DNA of 27,589 nucleotides from a virus. The stretch lies in the IMG/VR virus record IMGVR_UViG_3300030419_004608, positions 1 through 27,589 of that record. The stretch is one strand, 5' to 3'. Positions 1 to 26,762 of the stretch are shown here, one piece after another. Position numbers and translations under genes: made by a program. The number at the start of each line of letters is the position of its first letter. Within the stretch, counting starts at the first letter, position 1. A model generated the notes under the pieces. The model had not been told where the DNA came from and ran no database searches. It worked only from the letters and a program-made list of their open reading frames with translations.

Positions 1-186
1 GAATTAGATAAACGTAATATAATAGATTTAAGAGTTTTGGAAAATGGTGTAGGTTGTGAAAGGTTCGCTGAATTAGTTGCTTTATATCTACAAGATATTG
101 TTGATAAAGAAACAGATGGTAGGGTTTCTATTCATAAAGTACAATGTTGGGAACACGAAGATAATATGGCGGAATATGTCCGATAG
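1..186 (+). CDS. queD: 6-carboxytetrahydropterin synthase (QueD), C-terminal part only
   Basis: Only the last 61 codons lie in the window; the start is off the left edge. QueD turns dihydroneopterin triphosphate into 6-carboxy-5,6,7,8-tetrahydropterin, the second step of preQ0 synthesis. The visible tail fits the PTPS/QueD fold: a helix with a 'GCERFAELVALYL' stretch, then a terminal strand 'VSIHKVQCWEHEDNMAEY', which matches the family pattern of a strand followed by E-x(n)-A-x-Y. The stop at 184-186 overlaps the queE start by 11 bases, so the two are translationally coupled. The neighbours (queE, queC, folE, a DpdA-like gene) support the call. The catalytic Cys/His residues lie in the missing part, so activity cannot be judged. 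Confidence 0.8.
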   Translation, partial: ELDKRNIIDLRVLENGVGCERFAELVALYLQDIVDKETDGRVSIHKVQCWEHEDNMAEYVR

Positions 187-922
187 AATTCTTCCTATAA
201 ATGAAATGTATACTTGTTTACAAGGTGAAGGTAAGTTAACAGGAATACCACATATATTAATTAGAGTATCTGGTTGTAGATTAAGATGTCAGTTTGCTAA
301 TTCTTTTTGTGATACACCATATAGTTCGTGGAGTCCAGAAAAAGGTAAGTATAGTTATGAAGATATTTATGAATTTTATAAGAAACATAAAAGTATTAAA
401 CACACTATGATTACAGGTGGTGGACCAACATTACATTCAGGTATGTTAATTGCTTTATGTGAATTAGTAAAAGAGTTTGATCATTATATAACAATAGAAA
501 CTGAAGGTAGTGAGTACGTTGAAACTAAAGGTGATTTAATTTCTCTTTCACCAAAGTTATCAAACTCAACACCAAGACCTGGAACTTGGATGCCGTATCT
601 TAATAGAGAAGTTACAGAAAGTGATAAAAAGAAACACGAGAAGTGGCGTTGTAATTATGATGCTATGAAAGCTTTAATAAAACATCATCCTGATTATCAA
701 CTTAAACCTGTTATTTCAAGTGAAGAAGATTTACAGGAAGTAAAAGAGTTACAAAAAATATTAGATGTACCAAATGATAGGGTATATTTAATGCCTGAAG
801 GATTAGAACCTAAACAATTAAATGAAAGACGAAGATGGTTGATGGACTTGTGTGTTCGTGAAGGTTATAATTTTACAGATAGATTACATATAATAGCTTA
901 TGGAGATATACGTGGAGTATGA
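176..922 (+). CDS. queE: 7-carboxy-7-deazaguanine synthase (QueE), radical SAM, atypical cluster motif
   Basis: This 248-aa protein should convert 6-carboxytetrahydropterin to 7-carboxy-7-deazaguanine with SAM and a 4Fe-4S cluster. The N-terminus 'INEMYTCLQGEGKLTG' is the classic QueE substrate-binding opening. The cluster cysteines are C34, C38 and C45, which is CX3CX6C rather than the usual CX3CX2C, followed by the expected 'CDTPYSSW'. The SAM-binding 'TGGEP' reads TGGGP at residues 80-84, so its glutamate is replaced by Gly83. The frame is open upstream to 77, but ATG 176 is chosen because it gives the normal QueE N-terminus and overlaps queD by only 11 bases. Context makes the family assignment secure; the motif changes look like a variant subfamily rather than decay, since the frame is intact. 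Confidence 0.9.
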   Translation: MSDRILPINEMYTCLQGEGKLTGIPHILIRVSGCRLRCQFANSFCDTPYSSWSPEKGKYSYEDIYEFYKKHKSIKHTMITGGGPTLHSGMLIALCELVKEFDHYITIETEGSEYVETKGDLISLSPKLSNSTPRPGTWMPYLNREVTESDKKKHEKWRCNYDAMKALIKHHPDYQLKPVISSEEDLQEVKELQKILDVPNDRVYLMPEGLEPKQLNERRRWLMDLCVREGYNFTDRLHIIAYGDIRGV

Positions 923-1133
923 TTGGATAGGTTGGATAGGAACTGTAATGATTATATTTGGTTACTATTTCAACGCTAAAAAAATAAAAAATTGTTTTAT
1001 AATTTGGGGATTAGGTAATGTTGCATTTTTAATATATGCTTATTTAATAGATGCACCACCTCAAATAGCAATAAGTGCATTCGTAATTGGTATGAATGTA
1101 TACGGTTACAGACAATGGAGTTTAGATGAATAA
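900..1133 (+). CDS. Small three-helix membrane protein in the preQ0 cluster
   Basis: A 77-aa protein with three hydrophobic segments at about residues 9-25, 31-49 and 53-70, ending in 'NVYGYRQW'. The size and three-helix layout, with a Pro-Gln at the start of the third helix, recall half-transporters of the SemiSWEET/PnuC type, but I cannot assign a family with certainty. The start overlaps queE by 23 bases, and the 3' end overlaps queC by 8 bases, so it is embedded in the operon. A role in moving a base, nucleoside or vitamin linked to deazaguanine synthesis is plausible but is pure inference. An in-frame GTG at 912 is an alternative start; no strong Shine-Dalgarno decides between them. Confidence 0.65.
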   Translation: MEIYVEYDWIGWIGTVMIIFGYYFNAKKIKNCFIIWGLGNVAFLIYAYLIDAPPQIAISAFVIGMNVYGYRQWSLDE

Positions 1134-1851
1134 AGAAGCAGTATTAAGTATTAGTGGTGGATTAGATTCTACTTCGTTGTTAATTCATTTATTAGATAAA
1201 AGTTATGATAAGATACATGCTATTAGTTTTTATTATGGTCAAAAAAATGAATTAGAATTAAAAAGATTAGAGTTAAATTTGAAATATTTAAAATCTTATA
1301 AATTTGATATAAATCATACGTATATGAATTTATCAAGCTTTATGAGTAAGTTTAATTCTTCTTTGACAAGTAAAAGTATTTATGTACCTACTGGTAAAAC
1401 AGATGAAGATAAAATGAAATCAAACTTTGTACCAAATAGAAACGCTATTTTTTCAAGTTTGATTTATGGTTATGCAGTATCATTAGTAAAAGAAAAAGAT
1501 GTTTATGTAGATATAGGATTAGGTGTACACGATGGTTCACATACAATTCCACCAGATTGTACTCGTATATTTTTTGAAAAATTAGAAAGTGCATTTAAAG
1601 AAGGTAATATTGAGTCAGATAAAATAAATTATTATTTACCATATGTTGATGGTTATAAACATTTGATTGTTAAAGATGCGATTAAATGTTGTGATAATTT
1701 AGAATTAGATTCAGAAACAATATTTAGAAATACTTTATCGTGTTATCATCCTAATAGTACAGGAATATCTTGTGGTAAATGTGGAGCTTGTAACGATAGA
1801 GTATTAGCATTTAAAACATTAAAAGTAAAGGATTCAATAAAATATGAGTAA
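1126..1851 (+). CDS. queC: 7-cyano-7-deazaguanine (preQ0) synthase (QueC)
   Basis: This 241-aa protein is the ATP-dependent enzyme that converts 7-carboxy-7-deazaguanine and ammonia to preQ0. The PP-loop signature SGGLDST is at residues 10-16, and the family motif 'FVPNRNAIF' is in the middle. A zinc site near the C-terminus is complete: C206, C216, C219 and C222. Length is normal for stand-alone QueC, and there is no fused amidotransferase (Gat) domain like that reported in phages that make dG+. The start overlaps the small membrane gene and the stop overlaps folE by 8 bases, so the block is one operon. With no queF or Gat-QueC visible, preQ0 itself is the most likely end product here. Confidence 0.93.
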
Positions 1852-2473
1852 ATTAAAACATGCTAATGGTAATAATCCTTTAGATGAACAACAAAAATTA
1901 AATATGATTAAAGAAGCTTCTAAACATTATGGTCGTTATATGACAGCTCTTGGATTTGATTGGGAAAATGATCCTAATTCATCAGATACACCTATGAGAG
2001 TTGCTAAAGCTTTTGTTAATGATTTAGCAGATGGTGTTTATAATGGACCACCGAAGATTACAGCATTTGATAACGTTGATGGTTATGATGGTATAGTATT
2101 TCAAGGAAATATTAAATTACATTCTTTGTGTTCACATCATCACTTACCGTTTATAGGTAACGCTCACGTAGCATATCTTCCAACACCTGAAGGTAAAGTT
2201 ATTGGACTTAGTAAACTAAATCGTATAGTTGAGTTTTATGCTAGAAGACCTCAAGTGCAAGAAAATTTAACAATGCAGATTCACGACCATATAAATAAAG
2301 AATGTAGTAAAAATATTGGTGTTGCAGTAATGATTGAAGCTAATCATATGTGTGCTTGTGTTCGTGGTGTTAAACACGATGCTACTATGAAAACTGCTAA
2401 GTTAAGTAATACGTTTAAAAGTGTAGATAGAGTTAGAGATGAATTTTATAATTTTATAAGGGATTTAAAATGA
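1844..2473 (+). CDS. folE: GTP cyclohydrolase I (FolE)
   Basis: A 209-aa enzyme that opens GTP to dihydroneopterin triphosphate, the first step toward preQ0 as well as folate. The zinc ligands are visible as C96 and H99 in 'LCSHHHLPF', plus C170 in '[10 protein letters not shown]', which keeps the Cys-x3-Arg-Gly spacing of the family. The central '[22 protein letters not shown]' type segment is the highly conserved allosteric/active-site helix of type IA enzymes. It is full length and intact. It lies between queC and a phosphoribosyltransferase, with a 4-base overlap to the latter. In this setting it feeds deazaguanine synthesis rather than folate, because no other folate gene is present. Confidence 0.95.
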
Positions 2474-2874
2474 AAGAATTTGTAAGTTGGCAAGTAGTTG
2501 ATGAGTGTGTAACTGAAATTGCATTTCACCTTAAAGATACAGGTAAAGATTTTGTAGGTGTGTTTGGAATACCAAGAGGTGGTGTGATATTAGCTGTTAT
2601 GTTAAGTCATAAGTTAGACATACCATATATAACAGAATTTTGGAGAGTTGGTGATGGTGATATTGTAGTAATTGATGACATAGCAGATACAGGTAAAACA
2701 CTTCAATGGTATAAAGAACAACCTGAAACTAAAGATGCACATTATGTTACAATTCATGAACACGAACAAAGTATAGTTAAACCTGATTATTCAGTTTTAT
2801 ATAAACAAGATAAATGGATTGTTTATCCTTGGGAAGTAGAAGAGTCAGAAGAAGTACAGGATTATTTAAGATGA
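2470..2874 (+). CDS. Phosphoribosyltransferase, Gpt/Hpt-like
   Basis: A 134-aa type I phosphoribosyltransferase. The PRPP-binding signature with two acidic residues is at residues 66-77 ([12 protein letters not shown]), a 'GIPRGG' loop is at 33-38, and the C-terminal 'WIVYPWE' resembles the purine-base enzymes of the XGPRT/Gpt group. The family joins a purine base to PRPP to give a nucleotide. It is translationally coupled to folE upstream (4-base overlap) and to the DpdA-like gene downstream (ATGA overlap). Because DpdA-type exchange would release guanine, a guanine salvage role next to it makes sense (inference). It could equally serve general purine salvage; base specificity cannot be read from the sequence. 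Confidence 0.85.
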
Positions 2875-4055
2875 GTAAGTTTATATATTTTCCTTCGTTT
2901 TCAGCGGGAGCGATGGGTAATTCATTAGAAAAAAATGTCAAATTAAAGAATGGTCTATCTATTAGATTTTATAGTGAAGAATTTCCAGAGAGGTTTAGAC
3001 ATAAAGAAATATTAATAACAGCAGGTCATCATTATAAAGATGAAAATTATAAAGATGATTTAGGATTAACAGATAAAAATCTTGTAATGGGAGATTCAGG
3101 TGGTTATCAGATTGCGTCAGGTGCTATCAAATGGGATATGTCTATTCGAGAAAGAATTTTTAAGTGGTTAGAACATAACTCTGATATTGCGATGAATTTA
3201 GATATACCACCTAAAATAAAATATGAAGGTATGTATGAAGAATGTTTAAAGATTAGTAAAGATAACTTTAAATATTTTACAGATAATCAATCAGGTAATA
3301 CTGATTTCTTAAATGTTGTACAAGGTACAAATGAGTTTGAATATATAAATTGGTATAATGAAGTTAAAGATTTTCCTTTTCAAGGATGGGCTGTAGGTGG
3401 TGGAGGTAGAAGTGTATATGCTTTTATGTCAGGTGTAATGTCGTTATTGAATGGTAAAGAACATTTAAAAAATACAAATAAGTATTTTCATATTTTAGGT
3501 ATATCTAAGATTTCAGATTTTTTAATGTTAAATCAATTACAAAAATCTTTAAATGAAGTAGGATCTAATATAGTTGTTACAACTGATAGTTCTTCACCAG
3601 ATAGAGCAGTTGTTTTTGGTTCATACTATTTGAATTATAATTTTAAGAAAGCGACTTTTCAATCAATTAATGTACCTAAGTATGACGAGACTTTCAAGGA
3701 TCAAACATTTAAATATTTACCAGTATCTACTGAATTTGATAAGGAATATTTAAGAGAGGCGTTAACGTGGGATGATACTATAGAATGGAAAGGTCAATGT
3801 ACTATGGCTATAAGACTACATAATTTTATGCTTTTTAAAGAAGCTATTGAGAAAGCTGAATATTATGTTAATAGTCATGATTACATCTTAAAACAGATTT
3901 TATCTACTGATATGTATGAACTTTTAATGTCTTTAGATAAAATGGTTAAAAGTGATGATCCAAGAAAAGTATTTGAACAATATACACCATTATATAAGAA
4001 ATTAAGTAATACTAAAACAGAACCTAAAGTTAACACTAATCATAAATTTTTTTAA
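2871..4055 (+). CDS. dpdA: DpdA-like DNA 7-deazaguanine transglycosylase (TGT fold)
   Basis: A 394-aa member of the tRNA-guanine transglycosylase superfamily. TGT landmarks appear in order: 'MGDSGGYQ' with Asp75 (equivalent to the general acid Asp in DSGGFQ), 'NVVQGTN' (GIVQGG), 'GWAVGGG' (GLAIGG), 'HILGIS', and 'TTDSSSPDRA' with Asp239 at the position of the nucleophile. The C-terminal 'RLHNFMLF' mirrors the IHN helix, but the CXCXXC...H zinc site of tRNA-acting enzymes is absent and there is no PUA domain. This fits phage DpdA proteins, which swap guanine in DNA for preQ0. ATG 2871 is chosen because it gives an ATGA overlap with the previous gene; an in-frame ATG at 2814 lies deep inside that gene. 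It is the likely last step of the cluster. Confidence 0.85.
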   Translation: MSKFIYFPSFSAGAMGNSLEKNVKLKNGLSIRFYSEEFPERFRHKEILITAGHHYKDENYKDDLGLTDKNLVMGDSGGYQIASGAIKWDMSIRERIFKWLEHNSDIAMNLDIPPKIKYEGMYEECLKISKDNFKYFTDNQSGNTDFLNVVQGTNEFEYINWYNEVKDFPFQGWAVGGGGRSVYAFMSGVMSLLNGKEHLKNTNKYFHILGISKISDFLMLNQLQKSLNEVGSNIVVTTDSSSPDRAVVFGSYYLNYNFKKATFQSINVPKYDETFKDQTFKYLPVSTEFDKEYLREALTWDDTIEWKGQCTMAIRLHNFMLFKEAIEKAEYYVNSHDYILKQILSTDMYELLMSLDKMVKSDDPRKVFEQYTPLYKKLSNTKTEPKVNTNHKFF

Positions 4056-7855: not shown

Positions 7856-8314
7856 ATGACTAAGAAACAGTTAATGAAAATAATCACAGAAGTAATCCGT
7901 AAAGAAGTGAAAAAAGAAGTAGAAAAGATATTTATTAAAGAAGGAACTTCTAGTAAATTAGTTGATACTGTAAGTCGTACTAAGATAATTCCAGAGGTTT
8001 TAGAACCAAAGGAAGAAGTACAGTATACTAAGAATAAAAGTTTAAATAAAGTTTTAAACGAAACTGTTGGGTTAGCAAAATCACAAAAAGAGTTTGATGA
8101 GTATCCAACTTTAGGTAATGGTAGTTTTGATACATCAAAAATGACAGAACTTATGGGATATGGAAAAACTGATGAAGTAAAAAGAGATATAGTGGCGGTT
8201 GATACTTTAAAGAAAGCGGGTAAATCAATTAATGATGTTCCAGAACACGTAACAAACGCATTGACAAGAGATTATAGTGATTTAATGAAAGCTATGGATA
8301 AAAATAAGGGGTAA
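7856..8314 (+). CDS. Unknown tail-block protein with basic helical N-terminus
   Basis: A 152-aa protein with good GGAG ribosome site. Residues 1-30 form an amphipathic, Lys/Glu-rich helix 'MTKKQLMKIITEVIRKEV', a style of N-terminus seen on several proteins of marine phages. The middle is polar and the C-terminus helical. No domain is recognised. It lies between the gp5-like spike and gp25, so it may be a baseplate hub or wedge component. The N-terminal I-T-E at residues 10-12 would also fit a prohead-protease site, so an internal virion protein is an alternative (weak). Confidence 0.65.
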   Translation: MTKKQLMKIITEVIRKEVKKEVEKIFIKEGTSSKLVDTVSRTKIIPEVLEPKEEVQYTKNKSLNKVLNETVGLAKSQKEFDEYPTLGNGSFDTSKMTELMGYGKTDEVKRDIVAVDTLKKAGKSINDVPEHVTNALTRDYSDLMKAMDKNKG

Positions 8315-8755: not shown

Positions 8756-10747
8756 ATGGCTCGTACAAGTGTAAAAAAGAATATGGTAAAATCAGTCAAT
8801 TATCTCAATAGAGATTTTAGTGATTTTAGAGATGATTTAATTGAATTTGCTAAAGTATATTTTCCAAATACATATAATGATTTTAATGAAGCTTCACCTG
8901 GTATGATGTTTATTGAAATGGCGGCATATGTAGGTGATGTACTTTCTTATTATATAGATTCTCAATTCAGAGAATCATTATTAGCATATGCTGAAGAAAA
9001 AAGAAATGTATATAATATAGCACAGTCATTTGGATATAAACCTAAAGTTACTTCACCGTCCAGTGTAGTGTTAGATGTATTTCAAAGAATACCTGCATTA
9101 AACGCAAAACCAGATTATAGATATGCTTTAAATGTTAAAGCTGGTGCAACAGTAACCGCAGCTAGTACAGGTGCAACATTTAGAACATTAGAAGATTGTA
9201 ATTTTAAATTTTCAAGTTCTTATGATCCACGTGATGTTACTATTTTTGAATCTGATAGTGGAACACCAACAAAATTTTTATTAAAGAAAAAAGTAAAAGC
9301 TGAAAGTGGAACTATAGCTACTGAATACTTTTCTTTCAGTAGTGCTGAAAAATATGCACAAATTAAATTATCTAATCCGAAAGTTATAGAAATAATTTCA
9401 GTAACAGATAGTGACAATAATAAATGGTATGAAGTTGATTCTTTAGCTAGAGATACTATTTTTGAAGATATGGAGAATAATTCATCTAATGACCCTACTT
9501 CTGTAATTAATAGAGAAACATCTCCATATATTTTAAAACTAAAGAAAACTTCACGAAGATTTACAGCGTATATAAATCAAAATGATTTTACTGAATTACG
9601 ATTTGGAGCTGGTATATCGGATAATCCAGATGAAGAAATTATTCCTAATCCAGACATGGTTGGTTCAAGTTTACCAGGTAGTCCTAGTTATCTTACTACT
9701 GCATTTGATCCTAGTAACTTTTTAGAAACAAAAGCATTTGGTTTAGCTCCATCTAATACAACTTTAACTGTAAAATATGCTTACGGTGGTGGTATTGATG
9801 ATAATGTAAATTCAGATGATATTGTTGAGTTATCAAGTGTTTCTTATGGGATAGAAGATAATTTATTATCAACAGCATTAGTACAAGAAGCAAAAGATTC
9901 TGTAGCGTTTACTAATCCAAATCCAGCTACTGGTGGTTCTAACGGACAAACTATAAGAGAAGTAAGAGAAAGTGCACTAGCATTTTTTCAATCTCAACAA
10001 AGAAGTGTTACTAAAGAAGATTATATTGTTAGAGCGTATTCATTACCAGCTAAATATGGTAATCTCGCTAAAGTACATTTAGTACAAGATGATCAATTGA
10101 ATAAGACAGTAGGATTGGATAATTTAGAGAGAAAAGTAACTCAAGCAGATGTTGACGCTAATAAAACTATAAAACAGTTACAAGTAAGAGTACCAAATCC
10201 TTTAGCGATGAATATGTACACATTAGGGTATAACTCTAATAAAAAATTATCAGCTTTAAATCAGACTGTTAAAGAAAATTTAAAAACATATTTGTCTCAG
10301 TATAGATTAGTTACAGATGCAATTAATATTAAAGACGCGTATATTATAAACATAGCAGTTAGTTTTGCTATACTAACAAAATCAGGATTTAACAAAAATG
10401 ACGTACTTCTTAGATGTGTAACAGTAATTAAAGATTTCTTTAATATTGATAGATGGCAGATAGGTCAACCTATTGTGTTATCTGATATAGCTTATGAATT
10501 ATCATTAGTAGAAGGTGTAGCTACTGTAGTACCACCAGTAGAAAATAATCCTGATAAGTTACCAATTTTAATTGAAAATAAATATAAAGTTTCAGCTGGA
10601 TATTCTGGTAACTTTTATGATGTAGAAAGTGGTTTAATAGATGGTGTAATATATCCAGCGTTAGACCCAAGTATTTTTGAAGTTAAATATCCTGATTCAG
10701 ATATTAAAGGTAAAGTTTTAGGTGATAACTTAGGTATAGTGGAGTAG
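8756..10747 (+). CDS. 6: Baseplate wedge subunit gp6 (J-like)
   Basis: A 663-aa protein, the same size class as T4 gp6 (660 aa), which forms the inner baseplate ring. The N-terminus 'VNYLNRDFSDFRDDLIEFAKVYFP', then 'ASPGMMFIEMAAYVGDVLSYYIDSQFRES', is the typical gp6/baseplate J opening. The central part holds beta-rich domains ('LRFGAGI') and a 'REVRESALAFFQSQQRSVTKEDYI' helix with the J-family 'R-x-V-T-x-x-D-Y' motif. It is intact, with AGGAA before ATG. It would work with gp25 and the large protein at 13533. Confidence 0.92.
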   Translation: MARTSVKKNMVKSVNYLNRDFSDFRDDLIEFAKVYFPNTYNDFNEASPGMMFIEMAAYVGDVLSYYIDSQFRESLLAYAEEKRNVYNIAQSFGYKPKVTSPSSVVLDVFQRIPALNAKPDYRYALNVKAGATVTAASTGATFRTLEDCNFKFSSSYDPRDVTIFESDSGTPTKFLLKKKVKAESGTIATEYFSFSSAEKYAQIKLSNPKVIEIISVTDSDNNKWYEVDSLARDTIFEDMENNSSNDPTSVINRETSPYILKLKKTSRRFTAYINQNDFTELRFGAGISDNPDEEIIPNPDMVGSSLPGSPSYLTTAFDPSNFLETKAFGLAPSNTTLTVKYAYGGGIDDNVNSDDIVELSSVSYGIEDNLLSTALVQEAKDSVAFTNPNPATGGSNGQTIREVRESALAFFQSQQRSVTKEDYIVRAYSLPAKYGNLAKVHLVQDDQLNKTVGLDNLERKVTQADVDANKTIKQLQVRVPNPLAMNMYTLGYNSNKKLSALNQTVKENLKTYLSQYRLVTDAINIKDAYIINIAVSFAILTKSGFNKNDVLLRCVTVIKDFFNIDRWQIGQPIVLSDIAYELSLVEGVATVVPPVENNPDKLPILIENKYKVSAGYSGNFYDVESGLIDGVIYPALDPSIFEVKYPDSDIKGKVLGDNLGIVE

Positions 10748-10751
10748 ATAA

Positions 10752-11882
10752 ATGCATTATTTTACATTCGCAGATAAAGATACAACTATTTATGAAGTTA
10801 GTAGTAGTATGAACACTGGATTAGATGAAATATTAGAAGTAAGAAAAGATATTAGTGATACAGGAGATCAGATAAATGTTTCTCGTATATTAATTAAATT
10901 TGATATATCTGATTTATCTGAATCAATTTCTCGAGGATTAATTCCACAACCATCAAACGGACATTATGCTTCAAGTTCATATTATTTAAATTTATATGAT
11001 GCTAATCCGACAGCGTTAGCTACATCACAGAGTTTATTCGCTTATCCAGTTAGTCAGTCTTGGACTATGGGTGATGGTCATTCTTATGATAATCCAATAT
11101 CAAAAGAAGGTGCAAGTTGGACATATAGAATTGGAAAGATTAACGGAACACTATGGGCAGCTCAAGGTCCTAGTGCTTCTGGTGGACAATGGTATAGTGG
11201 TAGTGAATATGAAGCTTCTTTTTCTTTTGACCAAGATACTTCAGATGTTAGAATGAATGTTACTGATATATTTAGTAAATGGTTAGATAATACTATTGGA
11301 AATGACGGATTTATGATAAAAAGAAGTGGTAGTGTTTCAAATCAGAATAGTGGTAGTGATGAAGGTAGTACAACTAAATTCGGTAACTTTTCATTTTTCT
11401 CATCCGATACTCATACAAAATATCCACCAACATTAGAAGTTGTATGGGATGACTCAAAATGGTCTACAGGTTCATTATCACCAATAACAGGTTCTGATTT
11501 AGAAGATATGGTTATGTATATGAAAGGATTACGACCAGAATATAAAGAAAAAAGTAAAGCAAAATTTAGAGTTGTAGGTCGTGGAAGATTTCCAACTAAA
11601 ACATATTCAACAACTCCTTCTAATTTATCTGTGAAGTATTTACCTAGTGGTTCATCATACTATTCTATTAAAGATGCAGAAACAAATGAAACAGTTGTAC
11701 CTTACGGTAGTGGTTCTAAATTAAGTTGCGACTCTTCAGGTAACTACTTTAATGTTTGGATGAATGGATATCAACCTGAAAGATATTATAAACTAGAGTA
11801 TAGAGTGATAAGTGGAAGTGGAACCGCTGATGAAACTGACTTATATTTTGATGAGGGATTTACATTTAAGGTATCGTTATAA
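10752..11882 (+). CDS. Virion protein with DNRLRE-like N-terminal domain
   Basis: A 376-aa predicted baseplate or fibre protein. Residues about 5-60 read 'FADKDTTIYEVSSSMNTGLDEILEVRK' then 'VSRILIKFDISDLSES' (key pattern: D-T-x-I-Y...N-x-G...L-x-V...R-x-L-I-K-F-D-I-S-x-L), which is the signature of DNRLRE/CBM96-type beta-sandwich domains of surface and carbohydrate-associated proteins. The rest to about residue 235 continues that sandwich ('RMNVTDIFSKWLDN..GFMIKRSG'). The C-terminal 130 residues form a separate beta domain. It lies in the baseplate operon right after gp6, so I infer a host-facing wedge component. Exact T4 counterpart unknown. Confidence 0.7.
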   Translation: MHYFTFADKDTTIYEVSSSMNTGLDEILEVRKDISDTGDQINVSRILIKFDISDLSESISRGLIPQPSNGHYASSSYYLNLYDANPTALATSQSLFAYPVSQSWTMGDGHSYDNPISKEGASWTYRIGKINGTLWAAQGPSASGGQWYSGSEYEASFSFDQDTSDVRMNVTDIFSKWLDNTIGNDGFMIKRSGSVSNQNSGSDEGSTTKFGNFSFFSSDTHTKYPPTLEVVWDDSKWSTGSLSPITGSDLEDMVMYMKGLRPEYKEKSKAKFRVVGRGRFPTKTYSTTPSNLSVKYLPSGSSYYSIKDAETNETVVPYGSGSKLSCDSSGNYFNVWMNGYQPERYYKLEYRVISGSGTADETDLYFDEGFTFKVSL

Positions 11883-12574
11883 TGCCGTATACAAAATCAG
11901 AATTAGAAACTGTAAGTTTTTATCAAGACTTTGTAACGAAACTACGTGATAAGTATTTTGATGAAATAAAAACGTTTCTTAATAATAAATTTAGAAGAGA
12001 TGGGATATTATATTCCTTTGAAGATATATTTACGGGTTTAGGTATTGAAGATACTCCAACAGGAGAAGACTCAGAATATTCTTTTTTACGTAAAGAGGAT
12101 TATTCAATGTATACTGCATCAGAAAAGATAGCCGCAAAAAATGATCCTGAAATTCAATTAGAACCAGAAGTAACTGATCATAGAGAAGATCAATATTCAA
12201 AATCTAAAGGTAGATATCCGTTATATGAAAAGAGTGATATTTTAAATAAAGTAATAGATAGAGAAATTTCAGAATTAACAACACCTGAACCAACTGGAGG
12301 TACACTTCCTGCTGGAATAAAAAACGGTGATAGAGTGGCAGTAGAAAATGCTTTTCAATACGGTACATCACTAGACCCTTTAGATATTTGGTTTATTGAA
12401 GATAATAAAAAAAGAAAATATCAAAGTAAATTTGCTTTTTTTAGTAGTGTATATAGTAAAAGTTCTGTAAAATTATTTGAACAAAGTGTTATTGATTTAA
12501 TAGTTGATGGTAAAGATATAACAGTTGGATTTAGTAAATGGGACACAGATAACGCTTCAGAAGGTGTATATTAA
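11882..12574 (+). CDS. Unknown baseplate-block protein
   Basis: A 230-aa protein, one-base overlaps on both sides (TAATG-type junctions). The N-terminal 35 residues are helical ('SELETVSFYQDFVTKLRDKYFDEIKTFLNNKFRRDG'-type amphipathic segment), the middle is acidic and Pro/Thr-rich, and the C-terminus 'FSSVYSKSSVKLFEQSVIDLIVDG' looks globular. No domain recognised. Similar-sized proteins occur at this place in marine T4-like phages; I infer a structural role in the wedge or its assembly. Confidence 0.6.
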   Translation: MPYTKSELETVSFYQDFVTKLRDKYFDEIKTFLNNKFRRDGILYSFEDIFTGLGIEDTPTGEDSEYSFLRKEDYSMYTASEKIAAKNDPEIQLEPEVTDHREDQYSKSKGRYPLYEKSDILNKVIDREISELTTPEPTGGTLPAGIKNGDRVAVENAFQYGTSLDPLDIWFIEDNKKRKYQSKFAFFSSVYSKSSVKLFEQSVIDLIVDGKDITVGFSKWDTDNASEGVY

Positions 12575-13521
12575 TGGCTAGATTAAATGAAAAAGATTTA
12601 CCCTTATTAAGTGATGGTAAAACAGCATCGTTACTTGGTGCTGGCTACGCATATTTGGGTGGTAACTTTACAACTAATCCTAATGATTATGTACAAATTT
12701 CAATTTATGATACGAATGATAATTTTTTAGAAAGTGCCATAGTAGGTTCTGATGATTATATATACAATGCCGGAGAAGTAAAATTAAAAACAGGAACTAT
12801 ACTTAGAAGAATGGGTTATGATAGAGGTAGATATGTTGTAAAATATAATTTTTTTAGAAAGTTAGCAGGATCGTATGAAAATATATTAGTTGATGAAAAT
12901 AATAATAGATATTTCGGAAATTATTCTTTTAATGAAGAGACTGGAGAAATAACTGATGTAAATGGTAATAGAATATATTTAAAAGAATATAAATATTTTA
13001 CACACGAAATATCACCATCAAGAAAAGAAATTAGATTAGTACCTCAACGTATTAATGATAGACAATATAGAGATGATTTCTTTAATTTACAAACAGAACT
13101 TAAAAAAGTAGACGGTGACGGTGAGATTAAATTTGCAGGTGATGAAGGTGGTAAAGCTGATAGTTTAACAATGGAATATGTCGATTCAGATAAAAGTTTT
13201 CCATCACAACTAGCTAATGGTTATATTGTATTAAATAATGTATTCGCTCAACCATTGAAAGCTCCATCAGGATCAATATCCGAACCACCAGATATACCTT
13301 ATGGCCCAACTGGTACTGCAGGTTTTCCTGAGAATCCCATAGACGAGGATAGTTCTGTTGAAGTTAATGATTGGACATGGGGTTATTACCAAGAACAAAC
13401 TGGATTAGTTGATGGATATTTCGCAGATAGTGACAATAATAAATGGCGATATAAAAAAACTGGAAGTGTATTTGATTTTACTTACATACCTGATGATGAA
13501 TACCCACCTGATATTGATTAA
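12574..13521 (+). CDS. Unknown baseplate-block protein, beta-rich
   Basis: A 315-aa protein that starts one base inside the previous gene. The N-terminal third has a beta sandwich look ('YVQISIYDTNDNFLESAIVGSD', 'KTGTILRRMGYDRGRYVVKYNFFRKLAG'), resembling extended structural domains in tail proteins. The C-terminus is rich in Pro, Asp and Gly and ends 'DDEYPPDID'. It precedes the giant 1316-aa protein and is probably part of the same baseplate periphery. No enzymatic motif seen. Confidence 0.6.
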   Translation: MARLNEKDLPLLSDGKTASLLGAGYAYLGGNFTTNPNDYVQISIYDTNDNFLESAIVGSDDYIYNAGEVKLKTGTILRRMGYDRGRYVVKYNFFRKLAGSYENILVDENNNRYFGNYSFNEETGEITDVNGNRIYLKEYKYFTHEISPSRKEIRLVPQRINDRQYRDDFFNLQTELKKVDGDGEIKFAGDEGGKADSLTMEYVDSDKSFPSQLANGYIVLNNVFAQPLKAPSGSISEPPDIPYGPTGTAGFPENPIDEDSSVEVNDWTWGYYQEQTGLVDGYFADSDNNKWRYKKTGSVFDFTYIPDDEYPPDID

Positions 13522-13532
13522 GAAGAAATAAA

Positions 13533-16500
13533 ATGTCTAAGAATCCAACATTAAGTCCATATATTTCAAGAGTTACTTCGGTAGGTAGTACAGGTATATC
13601 GTTAAGCAAAACCTGGAATGAAGTTTTAGATTCAATCCAATCAAAACCAATTTCTGAAAATACTTCAGTTGCAAAATCTGCTAATTCAACTTTTACTGAT
13701 TGGAGTATTATTTACAAACATAACGATAAAAGAGATTTAAGTACATTTTTACATTTCGGTGATGATAAAATACTGTTAACTGTAAACTCTAAAACTGATG
13801 ATAACTTATTTCCTAAGTATCCACATTCTGTTGTTTATAAATTATACGAACCGTTACCAGATGATGTAGAAGTAAAAGATAATGTTTTTGTAGTAAGAGA
13901 AGTATTACCACCGTTAACTGAAACAGTTGAACTAGTTCCATATGATCAAGAAGATGAAGATGTACTAGTATTAAAAGTACCTGATTCAACACAAGTAGAT
14001 TCACCAATAACTAAACGTTCAACTGAGTTTAAAACTTATGATGATTTAGTTACATCAGATGTTAGACTTAAAAAAGAAATAGAAGATAAATTTATTAGTG
14101 GTAGTCAACAACCTGTTGATTTAAATATAGATTATTCCAACTATGAAAATTTTATTAATTTTTCTTCAGCTGAAAAAAGATTAAAAAACTTTAAATATAA
14201 AATAAGTCTATTAGACGGATATATACAAGAGAGTGCTTCATTAGTAAATATTACTAATTCTACGAATGATTTAGTTTCGTATGATAACAAAATAAGAAAA
14301 TTAAAAAGTAATTTTGACGGTTATGAAAGTTATCTCTATAATATAAGTTCTTCTTATAAATCTAGTTCTATGGGAGAAACACTTGATGCTTCGTGGCCAA
14401 AAACTGGAAGTGGATCTTATGCTGATCCTTATAAACCGTTGAGTGCATCAAGTACAGCGTTTACTAATTGGTACGGATCTATACCTTCACAAAAAGGACA
14501 ATTATATAGTGCGTCATTATACGATAGAGATAACCCAAATAGATTAGTTAATCTTTTACCTAATCATATAAGTACAGATGTAAGTAATAAACAGTTTTTA
14601 GATTTTATGGATATGATAGGTCAACAATTTGATGAATTATGGACTTACACAAAAGCAGTCGCAGATATAACAGATAGACAGAATGATTTAAGGGAAGGAT
14701 TTTCTAAAGATTTGATTTATACTTTAGCTAAATCTTTAGGTTGGGATATACAAGACGGTAAAGATTTATTAGAGTTAAGTAGAATAGGTTTTGGTCAGAA
14801 AGTGAGTGGAAGTGGTGATTATTCCTTATATACATCAGGTTCTATTAGTTCACCACCAGAAGCAGATATATCTAAAGAGATAACAAAAAGATTAATAGCT
14901 AGTATGCCATATATACTTAAATCAAAAGGTACTATAGGTTCTTTTAAAGCAATTATGAATTGTTATGGTATACCTTCTTCTATATTAAGAGTGAGAGAAT
15001 ATGGTGGGATACAAAAATCAAATCAACGAGATACGTTTGAAATATCAAGAAAGTTTACTAAAGCATTAGGATTTAGGGGTTCTCAGTACGTTACAAGTAG
15101 TTGGGCAGATGACGGAACTACAGATAGAAAACCTGAAACAGTAGAATTAAGGTTCAGAGCAGTATCTGGTTCTGATCAGATTTTAATTCAAAAAGATGCG
15201 AAGTGGGCTATTAAGTTAAAAGACAACGCTTCATCAGATAATAACGGTACAGTTTCATTTATGTTATCTGGTTCAGATGGTTATAAAGAAATAAGTTCAT
15301 CATTATTACCAGTATTTGATGGTGAATATTATTCAGTAATGTTAAAGAAATCAACGTTAAATATTGAATTATTTTCCTTTCCAGGATTTGATACTGGATC
15401 AATATTTAATCCACCTTTTGTACCAGGTACAAATAGTGCAGAAAACGGAGTAATAAAAATAGTAAGTAGTTCTCAAGCAGTAACACGTTCATCTGGAAGT
15501 AATAGTTTACTTCATAAGAACACAGCCGATGCGGGATCAGATAGTATTTCGTATTCTACTTTATATAAAAATGACGCTACTTTACCAGATTATGATGCGT
15601 CAATAGCTAGTGTTAGTGAAGGTGATATTTATAAGTTTTCTGCTTATGCAAAAGTTTCTTCTAGTGGTGTTGATTCAGTAGGTAGTTTAACTTTATTTGA
15701 ATTAGATAGTAGTGGTAATGTTGTTAATTGGGATGATGAACAACTTTATACTTCAATTGATGGTGGGGTCAAGACTTCTGATGTCGTAGGTTTAAATGAA
15801 ACTGATTGGAATCAAATACAAGTAACTAAAACTATAAAGTTTAGTAATACATCAGGATTAGGTATACGTTTAGAAAATCGTAAACCAGGTTCAACTATTT
15901 ATTGGGATGATGTATCAGTAAGAAAAATTTCTACAAATACAGATTCAATATCTGGTTCATTTACTTATGATTTATTTGTTAAAAAATATGACGCGGGATT
16001 AGATAGAATATTACATTCATCTAAAACATCAATGGTTATTACTGGTTCTAATGCTGTATCATATTCATATAACGCATCTTGGACTGGTAGTGGAGATTTA
16101 TATCTTGCTGGTGGTCCTACTTCAGGATCATTTAGTGCAAATAAATTAACAGGTTCTTTAATGGAATTTAGATTATGGAATGAACCATTAAAAGAAAGTA
16201 GATTTAATACTCATGTTTCAAATCCAAAGTCTTATATAGGTAATACACCAACTTCTTCATATTCTAATTTAATTAGAAGATATTCATTTGACGACAATAC
16301 TACATTATCTGATACAAGTACTATTAGAGATGTAAGACCTAATCAGAATACTACTGTAGCAGGATATACAAATGGATTTGGTGGAGCAAATATGTTTGAA
16401 TCAGTTGTAGATAAAACTAAAACTACAATACCAAATCACGGTCCTAATAGAAGAAGTGCAACTAAAATAAGAATAGAAAATAATTTTATAAGTGGTAGTT

Positions 16501-17483
16501 CTGCTGGATTAAGTAGAACTCAAAGATGGGATAGTAGTGCAAATGATTATTCACCTACAGATTCACCTAAAGTTGGTATATACTTTTCACCAGTTGACGC
16601 TGTAAATGAAGATATTATATTATCTTTTGCGAATTTAGATTTTAATAAATATTTAGGAGATCCTAGAGATAATTTTAAAGAACATTATAGTGAGTTAAAA
16701 GATGTATCAACTCAATATTTTAAAAAGTATGATGATAATAATGATTTTTGGGATTATATGCGTATTGTAAAATATTATGATCAAAGTATATTTAAACAAC
16801 TTAAAAAAGTAATACCGGCACGTACAAAACCACATTTAGGAACAGTTGTTGAGGGTAATATTTTTGAAAGACCCAAATCACCAGTTCAAAGAAACAATCC
16901 ATCTTTTACAAAACCTTTTTATGACAATACAATAAATATTTCATCTCTTGAACAAGAACATGAGGATAGTGGATCAGTAATGTCTATAGAAACTGAATAT
17001 CCAACACATTTAGCTACTATTACTGAATCACTATTTAGAGATCCTTCATTATATAGACTTTCAGCTAGTGATAATTATGAAGATAGAAATTTGTATTCAG
17101 GTAGTTCAGCTAAATACGGTGGTCCTAATTATGTTTTCTCAGAAGCTACTGGTTCAATTGTATTAAAAAATACTATATCACAATATAATCAAGAATATAG
17201 TTTCATATACACAAGTTCAGGTGATTTTGATATAAGTCTTAAAAAGAGCATTAATAGATTTGAAAACCTTTATCATACTAAATCATTAATAGATTCTGAT
17301 TTAGATCCTGGATATCAACATATAACAGCATGGAATAGGTCATTTTATGAAGGAGTAAAGAATACTTCTGATACAACTTTAGATGGAGATTTACCTATTA
17401 TTATTAGAACGACATCACCAACAGTAGCTGTACCTACAGATTCACCAGACGCAAATTTAACTATAATTGATAAGGAAAGATAA
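13533..17483 (+). CDS. Giant baseplate/fibre protein with gpI-like, LamG-like and CBM-like domains
   Basis: A 1316-aa virion protein, the largest in the window, in the place where T4 carries gp7 (1032 aa). About residues 350-500 resemble the phage tail protein I domain: 'FMDMIGQQFDELW' and 'ITKRLIASMPYILKSKGTIGSF' with the K-G-T turn. Residues about 534-625 and 807-905 look like two halves of a LamG/concanavalin sandwich, the second ending 'LTGSLMEFRLWNEPLKESRF'. Between them, about 645-795, lies a jelly-roll like CBM4_9 modules ('YKFSAYAKVSS', 'STIYWDDVSVRKI'). The C-terminus has a 'KKVIPARTKPHLGTVVEG' segment and an extended tail. I infer a wedge protein that also contacts host glycans. Gene 7 equivalence is likely but unproven. 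Confidence 0.75.
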   Translation: MSKNPTLSPYISRVTSVGSTGISLSKTWNEVLDSIQSKPISENTSVAKSANSTFTDWSIIYKHNDKRDLSTFLHFGDDKILLTVNSKTDDNLFPKYPHSVVYKLYEPLPDDVEVKDNVFVVREVLPPLTETVELVPYDQEDEDVLVLKVPDSTQVDSPITKRSTEFKTYDDLVTSDVRLKKEIEDKFISGSQQPVDLNIDYSNYENFINFSSAEKRLKNFKYKISLLDGYIQESASLVNITNSTNDLVSYDNKIRKLKSNFDGYESYLYNISSSYKSSSMGETLDASWPKTGSGSYADPYKPLSASSTAFTNWYGSIPSQKGQLYSASLYDRDNPNRLVNLLPNHISTDVSNKQFLDFMDMIGQQFDELWTYTKAVADITDRQNDLREGFSKDLIYTLAKSLGWDIQDGKDLLELSRIGFGQKVSGSGDYSLYTSGSISSPPEADISKEITKRLIASMPYILKSKGTIGSFKAIMNCYGIPSSILRVREYGGIQKSNQRDTFEISRKFTKALGFRGSQYVTSSWADDGTTDRKPETVELRFRAVSGSDQILIQKDAKWAIKLKDNASSDNNGTVSFMLSGSDGYKEISSSLLPVFDGEYYSVMLKKSTLNIELFSFPGFDTGSIFNPPFVPGTNSAENGVIKIVSSSQAVTRSSGSNSLLHKNTADAGSDSISYSTLYKNDATLPDYDASIASVSEGDIYKFSAYAKVSSSGVDSVGSLTLFELDSSGNVVNWDDEQLYTSIDGGVKTSDVVGLNETDWNQIQVTKTIKFSNTSGLGIRLENRKPGSTIYWDDVSVRKISTNTDSISGSFTYDLFVKKYDAGLDRILHSSKTSMVITGSNAVSYSYNASWTGSGDLYLAGGPTSGSFSANKLTGSLMEFRLWNEPLKESRFNTHVSNPKSYIGNTPTSSYSNLIRRYSFDDNTTLSDTSTIRDVRPNQNTTVAGYTNGFGGANMFESVVDKTKTTIPNHGPNRRSATKIRIENNFISGSSAGLSRTQRWDSSANDYSPTDSPKVGIYFSPVDAVNEDIILSFANLDFNKYLGDPRDNFKEHYSELKDVSTQYFKKYDDNNDFWDYMRIVKYYDQSIFKQLKKVIPARTKPHLGTVVEGNIFERPKSPVQRNNPSFTKPFYDNTINISSLEQEHEDSGSVMSIETEYPTHLATITESLFRDPSLYRLSASDNYEDRNLYSGSSAKYGGPNYVFSEATGSIVLKNTISQYNQEYSFIYTSSGDFDISLKKSINRFENLYHTKSLIDSDLDPGYQHITAWNRSFYEGVKNTSDTTLDGDLPIIIRTTSPTVAVPTDSPDANLTIIDKER

Positions 17484-24975: not shown

Positions 24976-25247
24976 TGGCTGATTTACCAACAGGACCTGA
25001 TGTAACTCACGGTGGAGATGGATTACCGGATTGGATGCAATTTACAATCACGGTAGCAATATTTGGTTTATTTGTATGGATTATATGGTTGTTATTTTAC
25101 TCTACATTAGATGATAAATTCAGAGATTTAATGAATATCATTGTGGGTGGTTTTTTGGCATCATTTGGTAAAGTTGTGGATTTTTGGTTTAAACACGATA
25201 GTAAGAAAAAATCAAATGGTGTGATTAAATGTACAGGAGGTAAATGA
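24975..25247 (+). CDS. Small membrane protein, holin-like topology
   Basis: A 90-aa protein with a short polar N-terminus, a strong helix at about 21-43 (MQFTITVAIFGLFVWIIWLLFY), a second hydrophobic segment at about 53-70 (MNIIVGGFLASFGKVVDFW) and a Lys-rich tail. Size, two helices and basic C-terminus resemble class II holins, but no endolysin is visible nearby and the call is by shape only. It begins inside the thioredoxin gene's stop and overlaps the first leader-bearing gene by 1-4 bases. Confidence 0.65.
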   Translation: MADLPTGPDVTHGGDGLPDWMQFTITVAIFGLFVWIIWLLFYSTLDDKFRDLMNIIVGGFLASFGKVVDFWFKHDSKKKSNGVIKCTGGK

Positions 25248-25570
25248 TGATTAAATTAAAGGATATTATAATAGAACGAGTAAGCCCAACTATAGTAAAA
25301 AAAGTTATGCAGTTTCGTAATCCTAAATTTATAGAAGCTGAATATAAACTTAGCAAAGGTAAAGAAAAAGAAAAATTTAAAGTTAAGAAAACACATGAAA
25401 ATGATAGTTTTTATTTTATAAATGTAAGTAGAGTTAAAGAAAGACCAAAAGAATTTAATAATTTTGAGTTTGTAATAGATAAAAAGAAACTTACTATAAA
25501 GTTTAGAGCTAAAATGGGAATGATGCCAAGTCTGATTTCTGACAAAATTTTAAGTATTAAAGTAAAATAA
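25247..25570 (+). CDS. Leader-bearing protein 1 (unknown), putative packaged head protein
   Basis: A 107-aa basic protein starting MIKLKDIIIE, the leader shared by four genes in a row. The I-I-E at residues 8-10 would be a prohead-protease site of the (L/I)-x-E type. The rest is Lys-rich and alternates strands and helices ('DSFYFINVSRVKERPKEFNNFEFVIDKKKLTIKF' region: a likely beta-sheet core) with no known domain. AGGAGG at 25235-25240 lies 6 bases before ATG 25247; the ATG at 25244 would leave only 3 bases, so 25247 is preferred and matches the other leaders. Inferred role: internal virion cargo. Confidence 0.75.
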   Translation: MIKLKDIIIERVSPTIVKKVMQFRNPKFIEAEYKLSKGKEKEKFKVKKTHENDSFYFINVSRVKERPKEFNNFEFVIDKKKLTIKFRAKMGMMPSLISDKILSIKVK

Positions 25571-25971
25571 TGATTAAGTTAAAAGATTTATTATATGAAC
25601 GTGATGAAAATGACACTAAAAATAGTGGTGGTATTTTATACTATTATGGTGATCAAGTATTATTATGTTTAAGTACTGGTTCTGGAAGGTGGAATATACC
25701 TAAAGGACATATTATGAAAGGTGAAAAACCATTAGAAGGATCAGTTAGAGAATTCAAAGAAGAAACTCAAATAATATTAAATGGTATTCCAGAGTTAGCA
25801 AATACATATAAAAAAGATAATGGTGGAAAATTTTATTTATATGTTTTTAAAGGTGAAAAAAGATTTGTACCTCATTTAGACTTTGAACATACTGATTGGG
25901 GTTATTTTGATATAGGTAATTTACCAGAACCGATAGATGATTGGGTTAAAGAGACTATAGAAAATGATTAA
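25570..25971 (+). CDS. Nudix hydrolase with the shared leader
   Basis: A 133-aa protein: leader MIKLKDLLYE (Y-E preceded by Leu, an L-x-E site), then a Nudix fold. The Nudix box runs from Gly46 to Ile68: G46-x5-E52-x7-R60-E61-F-K-E64-E65, with Gln67 where Gly is usual. All metal-binding glutamates are kept. 'RWNIPKGH' before the box is typical of the dinucleoside polyphosphate/RppH-like branch, which cuts Ap4A-type nucleotides or 5' RNA caps. Its ATG overlaps the previous stop by one base, and its last codons overlap the next gene's leader. Likely active; if packaged it could act at once on host nucleotides or RNA. Confidence 0.88.
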   Translation: MIKLKDLLYERDENDTKNSGGILYYYGDQVLLCLSTGSGRWNIPKGHIMKGEKPLEGSVREFKEETQIILNGIPELANTYKKDNGGKFYLYVFKGEKRFVPHLDFEHTDWGYFDIGNLPEPIDDWVKETIEND

Positions 25972-26182
25972 GTTAAAAAATATAGTAGAAGGATATATAC
26001 CACGAAGAAATGACAGTATGAAAACTGTATTCTTTTCTGCAGTAAGTGCGTTAGAAGATTTAGCCGAACTTTTTAGAGAAAGAGGTGATAGACTTACTGC
26101 TAACGCTCTAGAAAGAATATCACAGAATATTAGAAATATAATAACTGCAAATAAAACTTATAAGAAACACAAAAATGATTAA
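25964..26182 (+). CDS. Leader-bearing protein 3, small helical protein
   Basis: A 72-aa protein beginning MIKLKNIVE (I-V-E site), then a basic stretch 'GYIPRRNDSMK' and one or two amphipathic helices ('ALEDLAELFRERGDRLTANALERISQNIRNI'-type heptads; key run A-L-E-D-L-A-E-L-F). No domain recognised. Both ends overlap neighbours by 8 bases in the same way (…AATGATTAA…). In size it matches T4-type internal proteins such as mature IPI. Role inferred only from leader and context. Confidence 0.72.
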   Translation: MIKLKNIVEGYIPRRNDSMKTVFFSAVSALEDLAELFRERGDRLTANALERISQNIRNIITANKTYKKHKND

Positions 26183-26762
26183 GTTGAAGGATATAGTAGA
26201 AGGTAGTGTAACAGGAAATATAAAAGGTGTTAAAGGTTATACTGCTTTTATTAAACCATCTCAATGGAATGCTAAAAAGAAATCATTAGAAAAATCAATT
26301 AGTAGTTCTACTGGTTATATAATGGTTGGTAATAAAGAATTAGTTAAACCAGGTGATGAAACGTATAGAAGTTGGAAAAGACCAGCTATGTTAAAATTAA
26401 AACCTTTATTAGAAAGAATTGATTATCAAGATACTGCTTCTCAAATAATTAAATCTTATGGATTAAAGTCTAAAGTAAATTTTACAAATGTAGCTCAAAA
26501 AGGTGATTATAATTGGAAAAAAGATATTATTAATTTACGACCAAGTTATTCTACATTTAAAGATTTTTTAATGACATTATTACACGAAATACATCATGCT
26601 CTTCAAAGAAAGAAATTTGGTGTAAATAAATATGAAAAGTTATATCAAAGAGCAGGTGATTTAGCTGTACATCAAGGTAAAGATTTTCATGACGATAATA
26701 AATTTGAAGAAGAAGCTGAAAAATGGGCTAAAAAAAATATATCAAAGTGGATGCAAAAATAA
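26175..26762 (+). CDS. HEXXH metallopeptidase-like protein with the shared leader
   Basis: A 195-aa protein beginning MIKLKDIVE (I-V-E site). A zinc-peptidase motif H137-E138-I-H-H141 occurs in 'LMTLLHEIHHALQRKKFG', and 'FEEEAEKWAKKN' at about 177-188 offers the downstream Glu third ligand seen in gluzincin-like enzymes. The preceding 'DIINLRPSYSTFKDFLMTLL' resembles the edge strand and active-site helix of minimal metalloproteases. Residues 10-110 have no known domain and may recognise a target. It is the last of the leader series and is followed by a gene-free 41 bases. Proteolysis of a host protein after injection is a natural but untested idea. Confidence 0.78.
   Translation: MIKLKDIVEGSVTGNIKGVKGYTAFIKPSQWNAKKKSLEKSISSSTGYIMVGNKELVKPGDETYRSWKRPAMLKLKPLLERIDYQDTASQIIKSYGLKSKVNFTNVAQKGDYNWKKDIINLRPSYSTFKDFLMTLLHEIHHALQRKKFGVNKYEKLYQRAGDLAVHQGKDFHDDNKFEEEAEKWAKKNISKWMQK

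What the first reader, a model, noticed from the sequence alone, without database searches (positions are those of the whole stretch)
25247..26762. Four unrelated proteins in a row share a capsid-targeting-like leader: a candidate injected-effector locus
Seen: consecutive genes begin MIKLKDIIIE, MIKLKDLLYE, MIKLKNIVE and MIKLKDIVE, then diverge completely into an unknown protein, a Nudix hydrolase, a small helical protein and an HEXXH protein. Known: T4 internal proteins (IPI, IPII, IPIII, Alt) carry a short N-terminal capsid-targeting sequence removed in the prohead by gp21 protease after (L/I)-x-E; IPI is injected to inhibit a host restriction enzyme. All four leaders end in (I/L)-x-E. Inference: this is a set of head-packaged cargo delivered with the DNA, using a leader of different sequence from T4.
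Basis: partly seen in the sequence, partly recalled or inferred. Interest (0 to 1): 0.9.

Follow-up and report, generated by a model that had tools for sequence, protein, structure and literature searches.

The report
Phage cargo proteins sharing a packing tag
Four neighbouring phage genes make unrelated proteins that start with the same ten-residue tag, and the same tag sits on more than a hundred other unrelated proteins in aquatic phages, often next to the genes that build and cut the virus head, so it is probably the address label that loads proteins into the head for delivery into the next bacterium.

Summary
In detail: four consecutive genes (25247-26762) start MIKLK[DN][IL]... ending in (I/L)xE, then diverge. 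The leader is protein-level (synonymous codons vary) and phage-specific. It precedes at least 108 unrelated cargoes in IMG/VR contigs. Among leader proteins not selected for it, 34/37 carry [LIVM]xE at the right place against 5% background.

Its register is that of T4 propeptides (IPII/IPIII MKTYQEFIAE|A; gp24 MAKINELLRE|S). Many leader-bearing phages encode a gp21-type S77 prohead protease with T4 His85/Ser140 conserved, plus a gp23 capsid protein whose aligned pro-site is also (I/L/V)xE|. There the leader genes are enriched between gp21 and gp23 (21/49 against 6 expected). Homologous cargo occurs behind different leaders, mostly ending in xE.

Best explanation: a T4-like capsid-targeting sequence, removed by the prohead protease, loading accessory proteins (here a Nudix enzyme, a zincin and two unknowns) that are probably injected. 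Head targeting and cleavage are well supported by comparison; injection and effector function are inferred. The window itself is a fragment without head genes. T-even phages are known to do this with another leader, so this is a new variant of a known kind, much wider than described in papers I could search.

The parts
25247..25570 (+). Leader gene 1: MIKLKDIIIE|R + 97 aa of unknown function (possible start one codon upstream, 25244)
   Evidence: homolog with the same leader in L007 (cluster 25); no family match
25247..25276 (+). Leader 1, predicted capsid-targeting sequence, predicted cleavage after Glu10
25570..25971 (+). Leader gene 2: MIKLKDLLYE|R + Nudix hydrolase
   Evidence: PF00293 5e-11; homologs behind leaders MIKLKDLIFE (L005), MIKLKDILME (L061) and MIKLAQINE (L042)
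25570..25599 (+). Leader 2, predicted cleavage after Glu10
25964..26182 (+). Leader gene 3: MIKLKNIVE|G + 63 aa small protein
   Evidence: only weak sub-threshold Pfam matches
25964..25990 (+). Leader 3 (9 residues to Glu), predicted cleavage after Glu9
26175..26762 (+). Leader gene 4: MIKLKDIVE|G + N-terminal domain + zincin domain (LLERxD... HEIHH ... HDDN), minigluzincin-like by weak fold match
   Evidence: alignment A2, model pLDDT mostly above 85 over residues 81-195, Foldseek best match abylysin prob 0.98, E 0.02
26175..26201 (+). Leader 4 (9 residues to Glu), predicted cleavage after Glu9
8756..10747 (+). gp6-like baseplate wedge protein, not part of the cassette; used to link the window to phages with head genes
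   Evidence: phrog_6 5e-20; 59% identical in G035, which also has gp21, gp23 and a leader gene

Best explanation
The shared leader MIKLK(D/N)(L/I)(L/I)xE is a capsid-targeting sequence of the T4 type. During head assembly it docks accessory proteins into the prohead scaffold core, by analogy with T4 through hydrophobic residues 4 and 7. The phage's gp21-type (S77) prohead protease then cuts after the Glu, at the same (I/L/V)xE| motif at which it matures the major capsid protein and scaffold. The freed cargo stays in the head with the DNA and most likely enters the host at infection. The four window genes are one small translationally overlapping cargo cassette: an unknown 97-aa protein, a Nudix hydrolase, a small protein and a zincin. 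Shown by sequence: the leader module, its spread over unrelated cargo, its motif, its linkage to the head genes in relatives, and an intact protease in relatives. Inferred: targeting, cleavage, injection, and effector or anti-defence function.
For: (1) The leader is conserved while the cargo is not: 207 leader proteins (types A and B) fall into 123 cargo clusters, 108 of them with MIKLK; in an alignment of 114 proteins only M1 and L4 are invariant, and I2, K3, K5 and E10 are at least 90% conserved (the DNA pattern partly selected these). (2) Unselected MIKLK proteins, one per cargo cluster: 34/37 have [LIVM]xE ending at residue 9-12 against 5.3% in cargo bodies, P 3e-40. (3) S77 protease (PF03420) in 25/48 and gp23 (PF07068) in 19/48 of the leader-bearing or tail-related records, most of them fragments; 0 in 14 control genomes. 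T4 His85 and Ser140 columns are conserved 13/13. (4) MCP pro-site aligned over 17 sequences: P1 Glu 17/17, P3 I/L/V 17/17; scaffold N-termini read M(D/S)DLLKEA or similar. (5) MIKLK starts between gp21 and gp23: 21/49 against 6.0 expected (rotation P 5e-5); with near-duplicate contigs removed 15/42 against 4.9 (P 1e-3). (6) Same register as T4 IPII/IPIII MKTYQEFIAE|A and gp24 MAKINELLRE|S; in T4 IPIII, residues 4 and 7 drive targeting and 8 and 10 drive processing (PMC9026906). (7) Leader swapping: the same cargo occurs behind MIKLK and behind a second leader MK(I/L)TK..LKEIIREEI..(L/I)xE (clusters 2 and 20); zincin, Nudix, HAD-like and kinase homologs carry other xE leaders. (8) One 165-kb contig (G035) holds a window-type baseplate protein (59% identity), gp21, gp23 and a MIKLK gene between gp21 and gp23.
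Against: No virion data. The window and its nearest fragments hold no head genes. The window's leader genes lie beyond the tail genes, not in the head cluster (T4 ip genes are also outside it). About half of leader contigs show no S77 hit, including a 207-kb one (G031); most are fragments, but this is unresolved. Leaders 3 and 4 are one residue short of the T4 register, and P1' is Arg in leaders 1 and 2, whereas in the MCPs it is Ala, Ser or Val. A broader test of xE motifs in other head-interval genes was weak (58% against 45%, P 0.04). Some leader cargoes match lysozyme, M23 or cell-wall hydrolase families, which could be virion enzymes rather than cytoplasmic effectors.
Confidence: 0.8

Rival explanations
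1. The leader targets proteins to the prohead core and is cleaved, but the cargo serves head assembly or DNA condensation, or acts as virion lytic enzymes, and is not an injected effector.
For: Several cargo families recur in many head clusters and look like core components (for example cluster 4). Some cargo matches lysozyme or M23 families. T4 IPIII also affects head assembly (PMC9026906).
Against: Much of the cargo is accessory, variable and enzyme-like: Nudix, zeta-toxin/P-loop kinase, GNAT, RimK ATP-grasp, RNase_T, HAD-like by eye. 95 of 123 cargo clusters are singletons in this sample. T4 IPs with the same arrangement are injected anti-restriction proteins (PMC12373910).
Confidence: 0.25
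2. The shared start is a nucleotide-level feature (translation initiation or coupling element, or a recombination site), not a functional peptide.
For: ATGATTAA supplies TGA or TAA stops for the overlapping upstream gene, and short overlaps are common among the cassettes.
Against: Synonymous codons vary freely at I2, K3, L4, L7 and L8. Conservation extends to the hydrophobic residue-x-Glu beyond any start-codon context. Type B leaders with different DNA end in the same motif.
Confidence: 0.04
3. The leader is a sorting signal for something other than the head (membrane, tail, phage compartment).
For: A syntenic tail-region gene in the window (7856-8314) begins with a type-B-like amphipathic stretch, so short basic amphipathic N-termini are not confined to head genes.
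Against: No transmembrane or secretion character. Enrichment between gp21 and gp23. The motif matches MCP and scaffold protease sites.
Confidence: 0.06
4. The four genes are diverged duplicates sharing a real ancestral N-terminus.
For: Adjacent genes with near-identical starts.
Against: The cargo differs in kind (Nudix, zincin, small proteins), with no detectable similarity after the leader. The same cargo families occur elsewhere behind other leaders.
Confidence: 0.02

Closest known systems
T4 / T-even internal proteins IPI, IPII, IPIII (Tevenvirinae)
   Same: Unrelated proteins sharing only a roughly 10-residue N-terminal capsid-targeting leader cut by gp21; variable cassettes outside the head cluster; T4 ipII and ipIII lie close to a Nudix gene, nudE, which itself lacks the leader (PMC3012670, PMC12373910).
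   Different: Leader sequence MIKLKDLLxE instead of MKTYQEFIAE. Host phages are a distant environmental T4-like group. Many more cargo families, including clear enzymes.
T4 gp24 N-terminal propeptide MAKINELLRE
   Same: Nearly the same peptide pattern and register (K3, I/L4, E/D6, L7, L8, E10); gp24 is cleaved by gp21 (record note).
   Different: On T4 gp24 it is the propeptide of a shell vertex protein, not of internal cargo.
T4 Alt (injected ADP-ribosyltransferase)
   Same: Injected enzyme with a short N-terminal propeptide removed by gp21 (PMC9026906).
   Different: No ADP-ribosyltransferase identity could be established for the leader cargo tested here.
phiKZ / SPN3US ejection proteins
   Same: Internal head proteins matured after a Glu by a gp21-related protease (PMC5694885).
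   Different: Cleavage at (S/A)xE; several propeptides over 100 residues; no short tag shared by many proteins apart from the identical starts of gp53 and gp54.

Membership tests
T4-type capsid-targeting propeptides (functional class) | Short N-terminal peptide shared by otherwise unrelated proteins | tested here: met
T4-type capsid-targeting propeptides (functional class) | Determinants at residues 4 and 7 (targeting) and 8 and 10 (processing) | tested here: met
   L4 invariant, residue 7 L/I, residue 8 L/I/V/M/F, E10 in 97/108 (positions 4, 7, 8 and 10 were part of the scan pattern; in the unselected set the xE motif is at residues 9-12 in 34/37). Window leaders 3 and 4 are one residue shorter.
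T4-type capsid-targeting propeptides (functional class) | Cleavage motif like that of the MCP and scaffold of the same phages | tested here: met
   17/17 MCPs with (I/L/V)xE at the site aligned to T4 E65|A66; scaffold DLLKEA. The cleavage itself was not observed.
T4-type capsid-targeting propeptides (functional class) | A gp21-type S77 protease encoded by the same phage | tested here: inconclusive
   Not in the 27.6-kb window record or its nearest fragments. Present in the three large genomes with a full-length window-type baseplate match and in G035.
T4-type capsid-targeting propeptides (functional class) | Protein packaged, cleaved and found in virions | not testable with these tools
   Needs virion proteomics.
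T4-type capsid-targeting propeptides (functional class) | Cargo injected and active in the host | not testable with these tools
   Needs infection experiments.
T-even internal protein family (IPI/IPII/IPIII) | The T-even leader MKTYQEF(I)AE and homologous mature domains | tested here: not met
   Different leader sequence; the window cargo shows no match to T4 internal-protein families in Pfam or PHROGs.
Nudix hydrolases (25570-25971) | Nudix domain and box | tested here: met
   PF00293 43 bits, cutoff 21; G-x5-E-x7-REFKEE present, the final Gly of the box is replaced by Gln.
Minigluzincin-like metallopeptidase (26175-26762) | HEXXH and zincin fold | tested here: inconclusive
   HEI-H kept in 7/7. 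Foldseek best match abylysin E 0.02, prob 0.98. No Pfam match over cutoff.

The most novel reading that the evidence does not exclude
A large, mostly uncultured group of T4-like phages uses interchangeable, standardised head-loading tags (MIKLK... and MK[IL]TK...EIIREE...) to deliver hundreds of unrelated enzymes and small proteins into hosts, so reading N-termini alone yields a catalogue of injected anti-defence and takeover proteins.
Probability: 0.6. Interest if true: 0.8.

Novelty: new variant of a known kind. Interest (0 to 1): 0.62.

Why it matters
T-even internal proteins are injected anti-restriction factors that share only a leader, and three T4 members were recently shown to each block a different type IV restriction enzyme (PMC12373910). 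If the MIKLK tag does the same job, a ten-residue motif becomes a search key for injected phage proteins across environmental T4-like phages, where nearly all such genes are now 'hypothetical'. The prediction is testable in a cultured phage, Microcystis phage Mel-JY01, which carries the tag, gp21 and gp23.

Tried and rejected
ADP-ribosyltransferase fold for cargo clusters 3 and 21: suggested by H-x-T motifs by eye, but Pfam gave only KptA E 0.044 for one member and the cluster 3 model found no significant PDB match, so it is not claimed. Finding gp21 in the window's own record and nearest tail relatives: none, nearly all are short fragments. A general enrichment of xE in all head-interval genes: weak, since the interval also holds ordinary genes. 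Literature search for the leader sequence itself: none held. Literature on Mel-JY01: none held. tblastn of the zincin in annotated phages: no match. PADLOC scan of cargo: four weak or incidental families.

Full report
OBSERVATION. The window is a 27.6-kb virus record, a fragment. It holds T4-like baseplate and tail genes (gp25 PF04965, gp6-like phrog_6) after a 7-deazaguanine gene set. At its right end four consecutive genes begin MIKLKDIIIE, MIKLKDLLYE, MIKLKNIVE and MIKLKDIVE. A degenerate pattern finds exactly these four places. The second is a Nudix protein (PF00293). The fourth has HEIHH, kept as HEI-H in seven relatives. The DNA of the four leaders differs synonymously, so what is conserved is the peptide.

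IS IT A MODULE? A near relative (L005, 68% identity in the zincin) has seven MIKLK genes, including the Nudix and the zincin. 129 of 139 matches there are true N-termini, whereas a codon-reversed control pattern gave 13 loci and four true N-termini. In 257 Gb of prokaryote genomes the pattern gave 74 loci with 25 true N-termini; contigs with two copies each look like phage contigs binned with Flavobacteria and others, and the rest include plain chance such as a Flp-pilin-like start. The leader is therefore phage-specific and not a general start of cytoplasmic proteins. Together with a second leader type, MK(I/L)TK(S/T)xLKEIIREE(I/L)..., 207 proteins fall into 123 cargo clusters without detectable similarity to each other. 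Among MIKLK proteins that the pattern did not select, one per cluster, 34 of 37 have [LIVM]xE ending at residues 9-12, against 5.3% in the same proteins' bodies (P 3e-40).

LEADER SWAPS. Two cargo clusters occur behind both leader types. The zincin family occurs behind MIKLKDIVE|G, MIKLKDILE|G, MIKLKDLLLE|R, MSKLANLLE|D and MFKRILLE|R. In a descriptive survey of 88 homologs of leader cargo without MIKLK, 77 have a hydrophobic-x-Glu motif in the region before the cargo, by my count of the printed rows. This survey has no matched background and is not a statistical test.

HEAD LINKAGE. Of 48 leader-bearing or tail-related records, 25 have an S77 prohead protease and 19 a gp23 capsid protein, with no match in 14 control genomes. 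In contigs that hold both, 21 of 49 MIKLK starts fall between gp21 and gp23, against 6.0 expected; rotating all starts of a contig together gives P 5e-5, and dropping two near-duplicate contigs 15/42 against 4.9, P 1e-3. T4 has its scaffold gene in this slot. In G021 nine type B genes follow gp21 before the contig ends. The protease looks intact: the columns of T4 His85 and Ser140 (the catalytic residues by my own knowledge of gp21) are conserved in 13 of 13 sequences, T4 included. The major capsid proteins have, at the position aligned with the T4 maturation site, (I/L/V)xE followed by Ala, Ser or Val in 17 of 17 sequences, and the scaffold begins M(D/S)DLLKEA or similar. The leader's K(D/N)(L/I)(L/I)xE is thus the same kind of site.

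LINK TO THE WINDOW. The window and its nearest fragments contain no head genes. But the three large genomes with a full-length match to the window's baseplate protein (Microcystis phage Mel-JY01, Flavobacterium phage immuto, an uncultured 484-kb phage) all encode S77 and gp23. A 165-kb contig, G035, combines a 59%-identical baseplate protein, gp21, gp23 and a MIKLK gene between gp21 and gp23. So the protease is expected, not shown, for the window's own phage.

COMPARISON WITH T4. Translated from the T4 record, IPII and IPIII begin MKTYQEFIAEA, gp24 MAKINELLRES and IPI MKTFKEFTS. MIKLKDLLxE aligns without gaps. In IPIII, residues 4 and 7 are needed for targeting and 8 and 10 for processing, and the first ten residues suffice to package foreign proteins (PMC9026906). 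Those are the conserved positions here. T-even internal proteins are a diverse set sharing only this leader (PMC3012670), and Ip1-Ip3 each inhibit a different GmrSD restriction enzyme (PMC12373910). No paper in the library contains the MIKLK leader.

CARGO. Pfam scans of 114 cargo proteins find zeta-toxin/P-loop kinases, Nudix, GNAT acetyltransferases, RimK ATP-grasp, RNase_T and PAP2, and also lysozyme, M23 and cell-wall hydrolase families; most members match nothing. NCBIfam gives a similar picture. The window zincin is well modelled over residues 81-195 with a weak minigluzincin-like match.

MECHANISM AND CONFIDENCE. Shown: the module, its motif, its phage specificity, its linkage to gp21/gp23 in relatives, and the matching MCP and scaffold sites. 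Inferred: docking to the core, cleavage after Glu, retention in the head, injection. I put about 0.8 on head targeting with gp21 cleavage and about 0.65 on injection of most cargo. What the window's four proteins do in the host is open. A plausible reading is counter-defence or takeover, as for T4 internal proteins; the window also encodes QueC, a GTP cyclohydrolase and a TGT-like protein, which would fit 7-deazaguanine modification of its DNA.

VERDICT. Real, well supported, and a new variant of a known kind: the T4 capsid-targeting principle with a different, very widespread tag.

Noticed in passing
L195 (G021) 11128-17017; L036; L190: Second repeated leader type, MK(I/L)TK(S/T)(Q/K/R)LK(E/Q)IIREE(I/L)..(L/I)xE, on many unrelated proteins downstream of gp21; it shares cargo families with the MIKLK leader.
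   Followed up: partly
L133 39929-41800, L135 9145-14888 (Flavobacterium phage immuto): Two other repeated N-termini in an isolate: MKKSQLR.IIKE.L and (F)(D/N)L(K/R)(K/S)FL(V/T)ENKLT, again on dissimilar proteins, some near head genes; probably further leader types.
   Followed up: no
L024, L063, L071, L091, L193 13422-13790 and others (cargo cluster 0): A second conserved element, R(K/E)FGEPLPTL, follows the leader in many otherwise different head-interval proteins; meaning unknown.
   Followed up: no
window 77-4055: Radical SAM (QueE-like), QueC, GTP cyclohydrolase I, phosphoribosyltransferase and a TGT-like protein in a row: probable 7-deazaguanine DNA modification, itself an anti-restriction trait.
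   Followed up: partly
window 7856-8314: Small gene just before gp25 begins MTKKQLMKIITEVIRKEVKKEV, resembling type B leaders; immuto (L133:19160) and Mel-JY01 (L132:18928) have similar starts at the same place. It may be a leader protein or a tail protein that merely looks like one.
   Followed up: no
L277, L278, L279 (Mel-JY01 near 60-63 kb): A cultured phage with three leader paralogs (MIKLKSLLQEIISDRVWHLTT..., MIKLKSLLKEIISDRVWHLTT..., MIKLMSLVTETISDRVWHVTQ...) and a neighbouring protein with a HELSH motif; a tractable test system.
   Followed up: partly
alignment A2, residues 80-81 of the window 26175 protein: All seven zincin homologs keep an Glu80-Arg81 pair at the start of the zincin domain, mostly as LLE|R, possibly a second protease site or simply part of the fold.
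   Followed up: no
G031 (207 kb), G018 (126 kb): Long leader-bearing contigs without detectable S77 protease or gp23; either incomplete or using a diverged head system.
   Followed up: partly
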